Shown here: piece by piece, positions 34,161 to 39,186 of the stretch
How the letters are laid out: each line of letters begins with the position of its first letter
Numbering within the stretch: position 1 is the stretch's first letter
Assembly: GCA_017457865.1 (NCBI GenBank)
Contig: JAFTGN010000017.1
Location: forward strand, 1 to 47,401
Reading direction: 5' to 3'
DNA from: Lachnospiraceae bacterium
Lineage (GTDB): Bacteria; Bacillota; Clostridia; Lachnospirales; Lachnospiraceae
DNA: 47,401 bases
Translations under genes and position numbers: made by a program
The notes under the pieces: model-generated
What the model was told of the DNA's origin: nothing
The model's input: the letters and a program-made list of their open reading frames with translations, nothing else
Database searches by the model: none

Positions 34161-34186
34161 GATCAGTAAGCATAAATAGAACCATT

Positions 34187-34228
34187 CCCCCATACAATGA
34201 TTGCAGGATTGCTTTTGTTGCATGGGGG
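34187..34228 (+). promoter_or_regulatory. Hairpin covering the lipoprotein ribosome binding site
   Basis: CCCCCAT (34187-34193) pairs with ATGGGGG (34222-34228). The right arm contains the GGGGG Shine-Dalgarno sequence of the lipoprotein gene, and CTTTTGT follows. It may end the TraX transcript and also restrain translation of the next gene. Confidence 0.5.
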
Positions 34229-34235
34229 CTTTTGT

Positions 34236-34628
34236 ATGAAACAATATTTCTTTGTAGCAATGTTTGTGACTTGCTTTTTTCTGTATGGATGTGCAGCAAG
34301 TGCAGACAAAAAGGTAGAAGACTTAGAGTATACTATTGTAGAGCAGGCAGATGTACCGGAAGAATTGCAAAAAATCATCGAAGAAAAGAAAGAAGCACCC
34401 TTTACCCTGACTTACACAGACAATGAATGTCTGTACATCGTGGCAGGGTATGGAGTGCAAAGCACAGGTGGGTATTCCATAGAAGTACCGGAATTGTATC
34501 TGACCAAGGAAAATATTGTCATTGACACCAATCTGATCGGTCCTACTGAAAAAGCAGTGGCGTTAAAAAGCTATCCTTATGTTGTAGTCATGACAGAGTA
34601 TCGGGAATTGCCGGTGCTGTTTCAGTAA
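34236..34628 (+). CDS. PrcB-domain lipoprotein
   Basis: A 130-residue putative lipoprotein. It starts at ATG 34236 after GGGGG (34224-34228). The signal peptide ends with a lipobox LYGC near residue 19-22. The C-terminal domain resembles the PrcB_C family: FTLTYTDNECLYIVAGYG, then STGGYSIEV and NIVIDTNLIGP. PrcB was first described beside a spirochaete surface protease; here no protease gene is adjacent. It is probably anchored on the outer face of the membrane. Confidence 0.75.
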   Translation: MKQYFFVAMFVTCFFLYGCAASADKKVEDLEYTIVEQADVPEELQKIIEEKKEAPFTLTYTDNECLYIVAGYGVQSTGGYSIEVPELYLTKENIVIDTNLIGPTEKAVALKSYPYVVVMTEYRELPVLFQ

Positions 34629-34675
34629 CACGTGCCATCAAGCAGGACCATGGTATATTGTACAATAAGTACACG

Positions 34676-35605
34676 TTATTCTGTGAAAAATTCATACCAG
34701 TTTCCCGGAAAACCCATTTCTTCCAGAAGCTTTTTCCGGGAAAGGTGTGGAAAATCAGGCAGACTGTCTGTGATGAGCTGTTCCAGATCTTCTGCCAATA
34801 TCCTGAAATCAGAGTGGGGCAATAAATAAAAACAGATTATCAAAAGGGAAAACAGATCATGCTTGCCTTGTACATATTGGTTGCCCTTTTTGGGGATGGA
34901 AAGTTTGTTGTGGACAGGCATATCCGGGATGTCTAAGTCACACTGATGGGCATAAAGCTGCTCGTTGTGGGCGCAGACATTGCGGAATCGATTCAATGCA
35001 TTTAAAAACTGTCCTAACTGCCGCTCGTTGACAAAGTCAAACTTGCGGCTGATTTTGCTTTGTATGGAAAACTGTGTGACCTGATATAATTTTGCAAGAG
35101 TACCCATGGAAAAGGAGTGAATCAGTACCCACAGAGGCACATTGTGGTACTTTTCCTGAGAATGGCGGATATAGCCGTACTCAGAAGGTTTTTCCACATC
35201 ATTGCGGAACCCCCGGATCAGACTATCCACCATGCGGCGGTTTTGCTCATTGTAATTATAATGTTCCGTCTGTAAATAAGCAGCTTGTTCATTGCCGTAT
35301 TTTTCACAGAAACAATGAGAATAGCGTGCCTTCAAATGTCGTTCGATTTGCAGGATGTAATCTAAGAATAACATGCGCAGTTTGGTATCGAAATCATATA
35401 ACCCGATGATTTCGTCAAACGTCACCCCATCATAGTACCGGCCGGTAGAGGGATTGCGGAAAGGGTGCTTGTAACCACCAAAGACGAAGAAATAGCTGGT
35501 TCGCTCTAATGTGCGCAGTGCGGCTTTCCGGTTGGGGATCAAAAGTCCCTTCTGTTCCTCCAGATATTCTAACTGTTCTTCATAATTCAAAAACCGCTTT
35601 GCCAT
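34676..35605 (-). CDS. Abi_2/AbiF-type HEPN abortive-infection protein
   Basis: A 309-residue protein of the AbiD/AbiF (Abi_2) family, associated with phage defence and thought to act as HEPN ribonuclease toxins. The N-terminus has the family pattern SYFFVFGGYKHPFRN and DFDTKLRMLFLDYILQIERHLK. The HEPN catalytic motif is visible as RNVCAH in LNRFRNVCAHNEQLYAH (Rx4H). GGGAG before ATG 35605 supports the start. A 205-bp foldback repeat begins 29 bases upstream, and beyond it lies a minus-strand small RNA candidate (35846-35908), so toxin and RNA form a likely module. No recognisable promoter is left directly before the gene; the insertion may have altered its expression. Confidence 0.85.
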   Translation of the reverse strand: MAKRFLNYEEQLEYLEEQKGLLIPNRKAALRTLERTSYFFVFGGYKHPFRNPSTGRYYDGVTFDEIIGLYDFDTKLRMLFLDYILQIERHLKARYSHCFCEKYGNEQAAYLQTEHYNYNEQNRRMVDSLIRGFRNDVEKPSEYGYIRHSQEKYHNVPLWVLIHSFSMGTLAKLYQVTQFSIQSKISRKFDFVNERQLGQFLNALNRFRNVCAHNEQLYAHQCDLDIPDMPVHNKLSIPKKGNQYVQGKHDLFSLLIICFYLLPHSDFRILAEDLEQLITDSLPDFPHLSRKKLLEEMGFPGNWYEFFTE

Positions 35606-35634
35606 GTGTTGTCTCCCTTTTTATATAAAATAAG

Positions 35635-35839
35635 CAATTGCGAAACTGTGACACCGGATGCTTTTCATCAAAAATTTGATTTGAAAAACACGCTTTCGCT
35701 TCGGTTTCGCGTAACGGTACTAATGTTTTTCTACGCAAATGCTTGAAAAACAAAGTACCGACGCTTCACAAAGTTTTTCAAATAAAAAATTTCTGATGTA
35801 CAAGCAGTTTTTTTGGCTGTTCAAGGAGTTTCGCAATTG
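35635..35839. repeat. 205-bp foldback element, copy 1
   Basis: Ends are perfect 13-base inverted repeats: CAATTGCGAAACT (35635-35647) and AGTTTCGCAATTG (35827-35839). Internal pairing arms: TTTGAAAAAC (35680-35689) with GTTTTTCAAA (35773-35782), GCGT (35709-35712) with ACGC (35761-35764), CGGTACT (35715-35721) with AGTACCG (35754-35760), and GTTTTTC (35725-35731) with GAAAAAC (35745-35751). No coding potential and no clear target duplication. It has the form of a MITE or a structured intergenic repeat. It sits between the Abi gene and its upstream small RNA candidate. Confidence 0.8.
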
Positions 35840-35845
35840 ATAATA

Positions 35846-35908
35846 CAAAAAAGGGTTTCCGCAGAAACCCTCCCGGTCACAGTCCTCACGAGTATCTGTA
35901 ACACTTCT
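35846..35908 (-). ncRNA. Candidate small RNA upstream of the Abi gene
   Basis: A minus-strand unit with a near-consensus promoter predicts a start near 35908. The RNA would contain one hairpin with arms CTGTAAC (35896-35902, plus strand) and GTCACAG (35876-35882), then a terminator hairpin AGGGTTTC/GAAACCCT (35852-35871) with a GC-rich tetraloop, followed by five Us. Length is about 63 nt. It lies upstream of the Abi toxin gene on the same strand, the layout reported for AbiF toxin plus non-coding RNA systems. No reading frame fits inside. Confidence 0.65.
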
Positions 35909-35914
35909 ACATTC

Positions 35915-35943
35915 AGTATAACAGATGAAACAGGATTTGTCAA
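35915..35943 (-). promoter_or_regulatory. Promoter of the Abi-linked small RNA
   Basis: On the minus strand, TTGACA (35943-35938) and TATACT (35920-35915) with a 17-base spacer: a near-perfect sigma-A promoter in a region without a minus-strand reading frame. Confidence 0.75.
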
Positions 35944-35979: not shown

Positions 35980-36032
35980 TTGGTGATGGGATAAAATGAT
36001 GCCAATTTTCTCAGTGAAAGGTGGTAAATGCA

Positions 36033-36527
36033 ATGTATGAAAAAACCGACATTTCCGAAGAAGTGCTATGTGCAGAATATGAGGCGGTGTATCATTATGC
36101 CCGGATGCTTTGTGGGAATGAGGCAGATGCCCAGGACATTACGCAGGAAGCGTTTTTGCATGCAATGAAGGATTCTGGTCAGTTTGCGGGAAAGAGCAGT
36201 CTGTATACGTGGCTTTGTGCCATTGCCAAACATATCTGGCTGAACCAGTGTAAGAAGAGAAAGAAAGAAGTTTTGCCGGAGCAAATGGAGGAAACCTGTG
36301 GAGATGGGGAATTTTCTCTGGAACAGCAGATTGCGGATAAAGACACCGCAATGGAGATTCATCGAGTATTGCATACCTTGCAGGAACCATACAAAGAGGT
36401 GTTTTCCTTGCGGGTCTTTGGAGAGTTATCCTTTGGAGAAATTGCCGGATTGTTTCAAAAGAGTGAGAGTTGGGCCAGGGTCACATACCATCGTGCGAAG
36501 AAAATGATTTGCGAAATGCAAAGATAG
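36033..36527 (+). CDS. ECF RNA polymerase sigma factor
   Basis: A 164-residue sigma-70 family member with only regions 2 and 4. Region 2 shows NEADAQDITQEAFLHAM and YTWLCAIAKHIWLN; region 4 shows PYKEVFSLRVFGELSFGEIAGLF and WARVTYHRAKKMI. It would direct RNA polymerase to stress-type promoters such as the one at 35951-35979. GAAAGGTGG supports ATG 36033 over the GTG at 36021. Foldback copy 2 begins one base after its TAG stop, and the likely anti-sigma gene follows. Confidence 0.92.
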   Translation: MYEKTDISEEVLCAEYEAVYHYARMLCGNEADAQDITQEAFLHAMKDSGQFAGKSSLYTWLCAIAKHIWLNQCKKRKKEVLPEQMEETCGDGEFSLEQQIADKDTAMEIHRVLHTLQEPYKEVFSLRVFGELSFGEIAGLFQKSESWARVTYHRAKKMICEMQR

Positions 36528-36528
36528 A

Positions 36529-36733
36529 CAATTGCGAAACTATGATACCGGACGCCTTTGAACAGAAATTTTATTCAAAAAACACGCTCCCGCTTCGGTT
36601 TCATGTAACGGTACTAATATTTTTTTCGCTTAACGCTCAAAAAATAAAGTACCGGCATTCCACAGAGTTTTTTGAATGAAAAATTTCTGATGTACAGGCT
36701 ATGTTTTGGTCAAATCGAAGAGTGTTGCAATTG
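36529..36733. repeat. 205-bp foldback element, copy 2
   Basis: Same length as copy 1. The left end CAATTGCGAAACT (36529-36541) is identical; the right end AGTGTTGCAATTG (36721-36733) has diverged. Internal arms pair again but with different bases: ATTCAAAAAAC (36573-36583) with GTTTTTTGAAT (36667-36677), ATGT (36603-36606) with GCAT (36655-36658), CGGTACT (36609-36615) with AGTACCG (36648-36654), and ATTTTTT with AAAAAAT (36639-36645). It lies inside the sigma / anti-sigma operon. Confidence 0.8.
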
Positions 36734-37803: not shown

Positions 37804-39186
37804 ATGAACGTACAGGAGATCGAACAGTTTTTGGGTACAGTGGCACAGTGGGAGAGCAAGGAGCGTCTGATGGAGCGTCTGATGGATATGAGCAGGGTAC
37901 AGCCGGGTATGAACAAAGGCGGGATTCCGCTGGTGTATCATGAAGGCACCGCTTACGTAGACGCAGAGGACAGCCATACCCTGATCATCGGTTCCACCGG
38001 TTCCAAGAAGACCCGACTGGTGGTGATGCCTGCTGTGAAGCTGCTGGCCCAGGCAGGAGAATCTATGATCATTTCTGACCCAAAGGCAGAAGTGTACAAC
38101 CGGACTGCTTTTGAAATGGCAGCTGTGGGGTATCAGATTCGTGTGATCAATTTCCGTAATCCTTCTGTGGGAGACTGCTGGAATCCTCTTGCCATTCCAT
38201 TTGCTTTTTATCAGCAGGGGGATTTGGACCGTGCCTGTGAGTTTGTCAATGACATTGCGGGCAATCTGATTTTGTCAGAGGTATCCAAGGCAGACCCTTT
38301 CTGGGATTATTGTGCATCAGATTTGTTGTTTGGTCTGATCATGCTTTCCTTTAAGCGGACGAAAAATCCAAATGGGGTGTCTATCCGAACCATCTTACAG
38401 TTGCGCCAGAAAATGTTCGATAACAATGGAAATGTGGACAGAAGCCTTCGCTCTGAGGCAAGTATGGATCCGCTGATCTATTCCAGTCTGGTGGGCACAC
38501 TGAATGCACCGGAAAAAACCAGAACTTCTATTTTGGCAGTATTTGACCAGAAGATGCGCTGTTTCATGTATCAGAAGAACCTGACCGAGATGATGGATGC
38601 CAATACCATCTCTCTGGATCACATTGGTGTGGAGAAGACGGCCTTTTATCTGATCATGCCGGATGAAAAGACTACCTATCATCGTCTGGCGGCATTGTTT
38701 ATCAAGCAGAGTTACGAATATCTGATTTATCTGGCACAGGCCACAGGCGTGGGTTCCTTTAAGACCCGTATCAACTATATGTTAGATGAGTTTTCTTCCT
38801 TGCCTACCATTAAGGATTTCCCGACTATGATTTCTGCTGCCCGCAGCCGAAACATTCGGTTTAATCTGGTGGTGCAAAGTCAGAATCAGTTGAAAGCCCG
38901 TTATCATGAGGAAGCAGAAACCATTAAGTCCAACTGCAACAACTGGATTTTCCTGACCAGCCGTGAGCTGGAACTGTTAGAGGAGATCAGCAATCTGTGT
39001 GGAGAGAAAGCAGATGGGAAGCCGCTGTTGTCTGTATCAGCGCTCCAGCATCTGGATAAAAATCAGGGACAGGCACTGTTGCTGTGTGGCAGATTGTTCC
39101 CCTATATCACACAATTAGAAGACATCAATCATTATGATAATGGTGGATTCCAGATCCTGCCATTCAAGGAAAGAACAGAACAATAA
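37804..39186 (+). CDS. Orphan VirD4/TraG-type coupling ATPase
   Basis: A 460-residue ATPase of the type IV coupling protein (VirD4/TraG) family. TLIIGSTGSKKTRLVVMP holds the Walker A loop at 63-70, where the Gly before the invariant Lys is replaced by Lys. IISDPKAEVYN follows, then NYMLDEFSSLPTI as Walker B and NLVVQSQNQL. No N-terminal membrane helices are present, unlike conjugative coupling proteins. No relaxase, VirB4 or pilus genes occur nearby. It has its own promoter and terminator, so it is a single-gene unit and not a conjugation remnant by context. TAGGAG supports the start. Confidence 0.8.
   Translation: MNVQEIEQFLGTVAQWESKERLMERLMDMSRVQPGMNKGGIPLVYHEGTAYVDAEDSHTLIIGSTGSKKTRLVVMPAVKLLAQAGESMIISDPKAEVYNRTAFEMAAVGYQIRVINFRNPSVGDCWNPLAIPFAFYQQGDLDRACEFVNDIAGNLILSEVSKADPFWDYCASDLLFGLIMLSFKRTKNPNGVSIRTILQLRQKMFDNNGNVDRSLRSEASMDPLIYSSLVGTLNAPEKTRTSILAVFDQKMRCFMYQKNLTEMMDANTISLDHIGVEKTAFYLIMPDEKTTYHRLAALFIKQSYEYLIYLAQATGVGSFKTRINYMLDEFSSLPTIKDFPTMISAARSRNIRFNLVVQSQNQLKARYHEEAETIKSNCNNWIFLTSRELELLEEISNLCGEKADGKPLLSVSALQHLDKNQGQALLLCGRLFPYITQLEDINHYDNGGFQILPFKERTEQ

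What the first reader, a model, noticed from the sequence alone, without database searches (positions are those of the whole stretch)
34676..35943. AbiF-type HEPN toxin gene with an upstream small RNA: a candidate RNA-controlled defence module
The Abi_2 protein keeps the HEPN RNVCAH motif. Upstream on the same strand lies a complete mini-transcription unit: TTGACA-17-TATACT, one internal hairpin, a perfect terminator hairpin with a U run, and no reading frame. From memory, recent work described AbiF-family HEPN toxins restrained by an adjacent non-coding RNA and proposed them as ancestors of Cas13. This locus matches that layout, in a Lachnospiraceae-type genome. That the RNA is an antitoxin is inference.
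Basis: partly seen in the sequence, partly recalled or inferred. Interest (0 to 1): 0.85.

Follow-up and report, generated by a model that had tools for sequence, protein, structure and literature searches.

The report
Toxin gene with structured RNA partner
A gut-type bacterium carries a likely RNA-cutting toxin gene behind a small folded RNA that probably keeps it in check, and solitary copies of that RNA, without the toxin gene, turn up in viruses of bacteria, often beside their tRNA genes, as if used to disarm such toxins.

Summary
The minus-strand gene at 34676-35605 is an Abi_2 (AbiD/AbiF) HEPN-motif protein; a promoter-like site, hairpin and terminator lie upstream at 35842-35943. The RNA is real: the same covarying structure stands upstream of 80 of 80 relatives fetched, out of 436 found, and of 9 of 9 viral relatives at 35-42% identity. 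It is not the known abiF RNA RF03085, and no Rfam 15 family reaches its gathering score. So: a known kind of module, an RNA-restrained toxin, with an RNA family that I found neither in Rfam nor in the papers searched.

Unexpected: 27 viral contigs carry this RNA without an Abi_2 match in the record. In 12 of 27 it lies within 20 nt of a tRNA gene, against 0.13 expected. RF03085 does likewise: 46 of 47 viral records tested lack Abi_2, and six named phages carry it. I infer that phages carry antitoxin RNA as a decoy. Antitoxin and decoy functions are untested here.

The parts
34676..35605 (-). Abi_2 (AbiD/AbiF-type) HEPN-motif protein gene, 309 aa, candidate RNase toxin
34967..34984 (-). codons of the HEPN motif RNVCAH (residues 208-213)
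   Evidence: sequence; R, N, C, A, H invariant in 17 of 17
35842..35914 (-). structured small RNA (covariance model R1 match, 79.9 bits; the window RNA was among the model's 16 rows); transcript inferred to start near 35908 and end near 35848
35876..35902 (-). hairpin 1 of the RNA: 7-pair covarying outer stem and conserved loop
35849..35874 (-). hairpin 2 of the RNA, followed by a U run: terminator-like
35915..35943 (-). promoter-like site TTGACA-17-TATACT, 11 of 12
   Evidence: promoter-like sites at this place in 77 of 79 relatives
35628..35846 (.). MITE-like dispersed repeat (about 205 bp, inverted ends CAATTGCGAAACT) between RNA and gene

Best explanation
This is an RNA-restrained toxin module of the AbiD/AbiF kind. 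Shown: an Abi_2 HEPN-motif protein gene, and upstream on the same strand a two-hairpin RNA with a promoter-like site and a terminator, conserved in structure across the protein's subclade. Inferred: the promoter makes much short RNA; a little transcription runs past the terminator and makes toxin mRNA (in relatives the usual gap of about 22 nt leaves no room for another promoter). The RNA binds the HEPN protein and keeps its RNase site shut; when a phage stops host transcription or destroys RNA, the RNA runs out and the freed enzyme cuts RNA and halts growth. In this genome a dispersed repeat lengthens the spacer to 236 nt, so toxin expression may be weaker or driven otherwise. The RNA probably acts in trans, because solitary copies are kept where no toxin gene follows.
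For: Abi_2 membership and motif; sequence relation to PbAbiF 8VZ6, E 3e-10. RNA upstream in 15 of 15 fetched relatives at 37-100% identity, window included (3 further matches at 37% or more were not fetched), and in 80 of 80 GTDB loci, 57 bits or more; these form 53 clusters at 90% protein identity, 46 without a protein from the model-building loci. Outer stem: 5 of 7 pairs with changes on both sides; covariation score of the 10-pair structure 0.447 against 0.229 shuffled, 0 of 500 as high. Promoter-like site at the RNA start in 77 of 79 against 4.9 in mononucleotide shuffles. The RNA tracks the protein branch: 9 of 9 viral loci at 35-42% identity; at 31% or less one weak match of 21.9 bits in 49 loci, and one of 10.5 bits. 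On a relative: RCd22 neutralises and binds AbiF of C. difficile (PMC12373285, abstract, sections 7, 11, 12).
Against: No expression, toxicity or binding data for this genome. The RNA lacks the RF03085 motif of the experimentally proven antitoxin RCd22, so transfer of function rests on position and protein homology. The inner 3-pair helix of hairpin 1 is weakly supported (83% paired, no double change), and the count of pair types does not beat shuffles (188 of 500). The inserted repeat breaks the tight spacing seen in relatives. HEPN fold not modelled: the structure tool was off. In 3 of 80 relatives the toxin frame stops early (167, 49 and 221 aa) while the RNA stays; decay or assembly error.
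Confidence: 0.8

Rival explanations
1. The RNA is only a cis-acting leader: an attenuator whose terminator keeps the toxin gene silent until a phage factor lets expression through, as proposed for lactococcal AbiD1. It would not bind the toxin.
For: Tight spacing (median 22.5 nt to the start of the protein match) and a terminator hairpin in relatives; the AbiD1 structured leader and early-terminated transcript are described in PMC12373285 (introduction passage).
Against: A cis leader has no use where no toxin gene follows, yet 27 viral contigs and 12 bacterial places carry the RNA alone. Hairpin 1, which is not the terminator, is conserved in pairing. RCd22 works in trans in C. difficile (PMC12373285, section 11).
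Confidence: 0.12
2. Chance mini-transcription unit: promoter and terminator belong to something else and the RNA is unrelated to the toxin.
For: The RNA lies 236 nt from the gene and near a divergent gene at 36021; promoter-like and terminator-like counts in the region hardly exceed shuffles.
Against: 80 of 80 fetched relatives carry the RNA upstream of the gene; the spacing here is explained by an inserted repeat.
Confidence: 0.01
3. On the solitary copies: they are left-over antitoxins from decayed modules, or anti-addiction RNAs of mobile elements, not phage counter-defence.
For: One bacterial place (L146) keeps the RNA beside a 39-residue Abi_2 stump; 3 of 80 toxin frames stop early beside an intact RNA; some bacterial solitary copies lie before zeta-toxin-like, PBECR4 or HTH plus peptidase genes; one (L141) has two mismatches in the outer stem (read by eye); one viral contig has an integrase (L244), others are prophage-like.
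Against: 12 of 27 viral copies lie within 20 nt of a tRNA gene and only 2 of 21 have a promoter-like site at 9 of 12, which looks like re-use rather than decay. The stem keeps pairing in copies without a toxin gene. Named T7-like phages carry the other RNA family.
Confidence: 0.3
4. On the solitary copies: the RNA has a phage function of its own (for example within tRNA arrays), and Abi_2 toxins later took it over as a lock that senses phage interference.
For: Placement directly between tRNA genes; one large phage contig also holds ROOL RNA nearby.
Against: Two RNA families of different layout (this one and RF03085), both found with Abi_2 genes, occur beside phage tRNA genes, which a toxin-related role explains better.
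Confidence: 0.1

Closest known systems
AbiF-RCd22 of Clostridioides difficile phi027 (PMC12373285; abstract, sections 6, 7, 11, 12, part of 13 read)
   Same: Abi_2 protein with the HEPN R-x4-H motif; SigA-type promoter; short RNA ended by a terminator just upstream of the toxin gene; read-through to the toxin.
   Different: RCd22 has two RF03085 motifs; the window RNA has one hairpin of another layout and no RF03085 match. The sections read mention no repeat between RNA and gene.
PbAbiF-AbiFr (PDB 8VZ6; Zilberzwige-Tal et al., not held, seen through citing papers)
   Same: Protein related by sequence over residues 14-223; RNA antitoxin bound one per monomer (review passage, PMC12737573).
   Different: I could not see the AbiFr sequence, so relation of the RNAs is untested.
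Rfam RF03085 abiF RNA
   Same: Small hairpin RNA found with Abi_2 genes; solitary copies in phages and beside tRNA genes.
   Different: Different stem and loop layout. Where I saw it upstream of Abi_2 (G141, 32 bits, below its cut-off; viral L331), the protein is only distantly related to the window's.
Type III toxin-antitoxin ToxIN and the phage escape RNA pseudo-ToxI (PMC3475682, title and start of abstract in a listing only)
   Same: RNA antitoxin for an RNase toxin, and a phage-borne RNA mimic that defeats it.
   Different: ToxN is not an Abi_2 protein (recalled); ToxI is a tandem-repeat pseudoknot (recalled); here the RNA is a single two-hairpin unit.
Cyanophage S-CREM1 abiF sRNA (PMC9964418, passages read)
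   Same: RF03085 RNA in a tRNA-rich lytic phage without an Abi_2 match.
   Different: The passages I read name no specific function and do not mention its place between tRNA-Asn and tRNA-Gly.

Membership tests
Abi_2 / AbiD-AbiF HEPN proteins | PF07751 match over the curated cut-off | tested here: met
   156.1 bits against 25.6
Abi_2 / AbiD-AbiF HEPN proteins | R-N-x-x-x-H type HEPN motif kept in the family | tested here: met
   R208, N209, H213 invariant in 17 of 17
Abi_2 / AbiD-AbiF HEPN proteins | HEPN four-helix dimer fold | not tested
   structure tool off; sequence match to 8VZ6 only
AbiF-type RNA-restrained toxin module | conserved RNA with promoter and terminator just upstream on the same strand | tested here: met
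   80 of 80 fetched loci, promoter-like site in 77 of 79; in the window itself the RNA is 236 nt away
AbiF-type RNA-restrained toxin module | RNA neutralises the toxin by binding it | not testable with these tools
   needs co-expression and co-purification
Rfam RF03085 (abiF RNA) | covariance match at 37 bits or more | tested here: not met
   no match at gathering in the window; at E up to 10 in 451 nt, 8 sub-threshold matches to other families, none RF03085; none in 10 loci at E up to 1 (window's own, 7 others with this RNA, 2 of another branch); none at E up to 0.1 in 7 viral loci with the solitary RNA
Type III toxin-antitoxin (ToxIN, CptIN, TenpIN) | antitoxin of several tandem repeats (recalled) | tested here: not met
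   single RNA unit in the window; two tandem units in one relative, L013 = L057
Phage-borne antitoxin RNA mimic | RNA homologous to the toxin-linked RNA in a virus that lacks the toxin gene | tested here: met
   27 viral contigs, 0 of 27 records with an Abi_2 match; records may be fragments, so absence from the whole virus is not shown
Phage-borne antitoxin RNA mimic | restores phage growth on a host with the toxin | not testable with these tools
   needs phage assay
Type VI CRISPR-Cas13 | CRISPR array with a two-HEPN Cas13 effector | not tested
   no search for an array or for a second HEPN motif was made

The most novel reading that the evidence does not exclude
Phages of several kinds carry solitary AbiD/AbiF antitoxin RNAs as RNA-based counter-defence, often as an extra slot beside or between their tRNA genes so that tRNA-processing enzymes cut the RNA out. 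At least two antitoxin RNA families of different layout (the one found here and RF03085) have been taken up in this way, the latter also in named phages (T7-like Aeromonas phages, Synechococcus phages).
Probability: 0.6. Interest if true: 0.88.

Novelty: new variant of a known kind. Interest (0 to 1): 0.78.

Why it matters
AbiD/AbiF toxins are proposed ancestors of Cas13 (PMC12165695 passage; PMC12737573 passages). A second RNA family of different layout, tied to another Abi_2 branch, gives an independent case for asking how a HEPN protein reads its RNA. If the solitary copies beside phage tRNA genes are decoys, they explain some non-tRNA RNAs in phage tRNA arrays, add an RNA class of anti-defence, and allow a simple test with small plasmids in E. 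coli K-12 and with named phages.

Tried and rejected
RF03085 membership of the window RNA: rejected. One sub-threshold Rfam match, Atu_C8 at 29.4 bits against 50, covers the RNA of L022; I take it for chance. Folding energy as evidence for hairpin 1: rejected, z 0.3. Chance origin of viral matches: a reversed pattern gave 7 stretches, 0 of 7 with a model match, and 1 of 4 free stem pairs in each. BLAST of new-type RNAs against named phages: only two unannotated faecal phage clones cover at least 80% of a query, and both hold Abi_2 beside the RNA; against plasmids no place covers 80%. So I know no named phage with the new RNA alone; the named cases are all RF03085. Thirteen weaker whole-genome places (20-27 bits) were left out of all counts. 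One pattern-B stretch (L245, 11.5 bits) was dropped. One of six tRNA-adjacent RF03085 candidates (L318) did not reach Rfam's score. In L210 and L242 (38 and 40 bits) I see no clear second hairpin.

Ascertainment: viral copies were found by patterns that fix loop and part of the stem, so conservation there is not evidence; only the four free stem pairs of pattern A and the covariance scores are. The 80 loci are the best 80 of 436. In one search gaps run to the start of the protein match, so a few are too long (L080). The '20 lineages' were collapsed by eye; L222 and L227 share RNA and upstream flank with two places of genome G215, so they are probably not independent of those. Of the phages hit I scanned six with Rfam; PT2, PZL-Ah152 and three further records were not scanned.

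Weinberg 2017 and Zilberzwige-Tal 2025 are not held.

Full report
What is there. The minus-strand gene 34676-35605 encodes 309 aa. It is an Abi_2 protein (PF07751, 1.6e-45; PADLOC AbiD, 3.1e-60) and matches one solved structure at E up to 1, 8VZ6, an Abi family protein (E 3.3e-10, residues 14-223); PMC12737573 names 8VZ6 as PbAbiF with its ncRNA (figure legend). The motif RNVCAH (residues 208-213) has R, N, C, A and H invariant in 17 of 17 aligned proteins, window included. Upstream on the same strand are TTGACA-17-TATACT, a hairpin and an 11-pair terminator with a U run; by counts these hardly exceed shuffles (2 promoter-like sites against 1.2, 1 terminator against 0.2). The stretch 34172-35620, the gene and about 500 bp beyond it, is 95% identical in DNA to the rumen relative RUG702 (L047) while the proteins are 99% identical, which suggests purifying selection.

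Is the RNA real? Of 145 related genomes, 32 have a relative of the protein. Of the 18 matches at 37% identity or more I had 15 as loci, the window's own included; all 15 show the hairpin upstream, one (L013) twice. In the alignment of these 16 RNAs (A1) 5 of 7 outer-stem pairs have changes on both sides; the covariation score is 0.447 against 0.229 in shuffles (0 of 500 as high), and slid structures fall to 0.163 or less. Against this, the inner helix has no double change and 83% pairing, and the number of pair types does not beat shuffles (188 of 500). A covariance model (R1) was then used on new loci. A genome scan matched 463 stretches, of which 436 encode relatives; the best 80 were kept. 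R1 finds the RNA upstream of the gene on the same strand in 80 of 80, at 57 bits or more. These 80 proteins form 53 clusters at 90% identity, 46 without a protein from the loci used to build the model. The gap from RNA to protein match is 9-165 nt, median 22.5, and a promoter-like site of 9 of 12 or better stands at the RNA start in 77 of 79 distinct cases, against 4.9 in mononucleotide shuffles.

Which RNA is it? Not RF03085: no Rfam family reaches gathering in the window; at E up to 10 in 451 nt around the RNA there are 8 sub-threshold matches, none RF03085; none in 10 loci at E up to 1 (window's own, 7 others with this RNA, 2 of another branch); none at E up to 0.1 in 7 viral loci with the solitary RNA. 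RF03085 has another layout and in the 145 genomes reaches its score in 3. The new RNA tracks one branch of Abi_2: in viral relatives it is present in 9 of 9 at 35-42% identity; in the 49 at 31% or less there is one weak match of 21.9 bits and one of 10.5. In fetched family and order members at 34% or less, 0 of 15 (best a partial 7.7 bits). I found no paper on it in eight searches of the held library; the key structural paper is not held.

Between RNA and gene lies a repeat (35628-35846) with 40 scored matches in this 2.6-Mb genome (the scoring cap; 160 candidates); as RNA it would fold at -70 kcal/mol, z -7.1. Some other copies show what look like 11-bp target duplications (read by eye). The sister genome G002 has the same RNA and a 99% identical protein, but its insert does not align with the window's and belongs to another repeat, matched 37 times there and 39 times here. 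So two repeat families seem to have landed in the same spacer in two sister species. In most relatives the spacer is short, so toxin made by read-through is likely there and uncertain here.

Solitary copies in bacteria. In 391 genomes of the class, R1 has 20 places above 40 bits. Seven lie beside an Abi_2 match, one beside a 39-residue Abi_2 stump (L146), and 12 have no Abi_2 in the 1.9-4.2 kb fetched. Five of these genomes (G158, G170, G191, G215, G287; 6 places) have no PF07751 match in the whole assembly. Neighbours of solitary copies include a zeta-toxin-like gene (three genomes of one genus by sequence; Pfam on one of them), PBECR4, HTH plus M78 peptidase, DUF3990, and prophage-like stretches (L142, L143).

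Solitary copies in viruses. A pattern that fixes the loop and part of the stem hit 24 stretches of IMG/VR. R1 scores all 24 at 38 bits or more. Six hold Abi_2; for the other 18, a PF07751 search of each whole record finds 0 of 18. The reversed pattern hit 7 stretches, none with an R1 match. At the four stem pairs that the pattern leaves free, 18 of 24 matches pair at all four and 6 at three; the 7 reversed ones pair at one each. A second pattern hit 20 stretches, 10 of them new; 9 of 10 score 40 bits or more, and 0 of 9 records hold Abi_2. That makes 27 solitary contigs; records may be fragments. Among 20 solitary RNAs plus the window's, the stem covaries (0.484 against 0.265, 0 of 500; pairs with double changes 6 against 3.4, reached in 9 of 500; part of the stem is fixed by the patterns). 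I scanned 20 proteins of 13 contigs: 9 contigs gave head, packaging, tail or lysis families (in L223 only weak tail matches), 3 other phage families (an integrase in L244), 1 none.

The tRNA slot. In 12 of 27 solitary contigs the RNA lies within 20 nt of a tRNA gene; random placement on the same loci gives 0.13 (0 of 5000 as high); one per lineage, 5 of 20 against 0.09; the Abi_2-linked viral copies, 0 of 6. In L209/L230 and L218/L224/L225 it fills the space between tRNA-Met and tRNA-Arg; in L218 the encoded CCA of tRNA-Met is followed at once by AGTGATCG, the 5' element that most toxin-linked RNAs have but the window's does not. A promoter-like site at 9 of 12 is found at only 2 of 21 solitary viral RNAs tested. 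This looks like expression by the phage's own array and release by tRNA processing (inference).

The same for the known RNA. An RF03085 motif hit 109 viral stretches, 80 kept; 44 have all six outer pairs, the rest are chance or damaged. Of 47 records submitted (these 44 and three tRNA-adjacent ones), 1 holds Abi_2. Six of 43 solitary ones lie within 20 nt of a tRNA gene, against 0.13 expected; 5 of these 6 reach Rfam's score. Of the named phages hit by BLAST (and PMC9964418) I scanned six, and RF03085 scores above its cut-off in all six: S-CREM1, S-SZBM1, S-SRM01, Aeromonas phages PZL-Ah8 and T7-Ah, and Salicola phage CGphi29. In the three Synechococcus phages it ends 4-5 nt before a tRNA gene. 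In PZL-Ah8 and T7-Ah it lies between the connector and scaffold genes, in PZL-Ah8 shortly after ACTATAGGGA, which resembles a T7-type promoter (the resemblance is recalled). PF07751 is absent from S-CREM1; tblastn with 62 Abi_2 queries finds nothing convincing in PZL-Ah8 (best E 0.02); for the other four only the fetched stretches were checked.

How it most likely works. In C. difficile the RF03085-type RNA RCd22 neutralises AbiF in cis and in trans and binds it (PMC12373285, abstract and sections 7, 11, 12, part of 13). By position and protein homology I infer the same job for the window RNA (0.8). If so, a phage that makes the RNA itself would keep the toxin shut when host RNA supply fails. 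The precedent is the RNA mimicry by which a phage escapes ToxIN (PMC3475682, listing only). I give the decoy reading 0.6. It competes with decay remnants, anti-addiction RNAs of mobile elements, and an unknown phage function.

Novelty. The module is a new variant of a known kind. The solitary phage copies of two AbiD/F-linked RNA families of different layout, concentrated at tRNA genes, are the surprising part. The passages I read of PMC9964418 and of the review PMC12197685 mention the S-CREM1 RNA without a specific function or its tRNA setting.

Noticed in passing
window 35628-35846 and 36529-36733: Two copies of a MITE-like repeat (about 205 bp) with 40 scored matches in this genome (the cap) and 43 in sister genome G002, none in G001.
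   Followed up: partly
L011 712-866: A different repeat (37 matches in G002, 39 in the window's genome) sits in the same RNA-to-toxin spacer in the sister species.
   Followed up: partly
L026 and L036, upstream of Abi_2: Two distant Abi_2 genes share another hairpin-terminator RNA (core CTCCGGTGTCCTTCGGGCCCGGGG), and L035/L037 share a further one: other Abi_2 branches seem to have their own RNA types (by eye).
   Followed up: no
L137, L140, L144: In three genomes of one genus the RNA precedes a 59-aa gene and a zeta-toxin-like gene instead of Abi_2.
   Followed up: partly
L241 191-770: A 163-kb phage contig carries ROOL RNA (RF03087) just before tRNA-Leu, about 600 nt from the solitary RNA.
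   Followed up: no
L013 (= L057) 245-385: Two tandem copies of the RNA before one Abi_2 gene, like the two motifs of RCd22.
   Followed up: no
window 36021-36527 and 37804-39186: The divergent neighbour reads like an ECF sigma factor and a further gene like a VirD4/TraG coupling protein (read by eye, not scanned).
   Followed up: no
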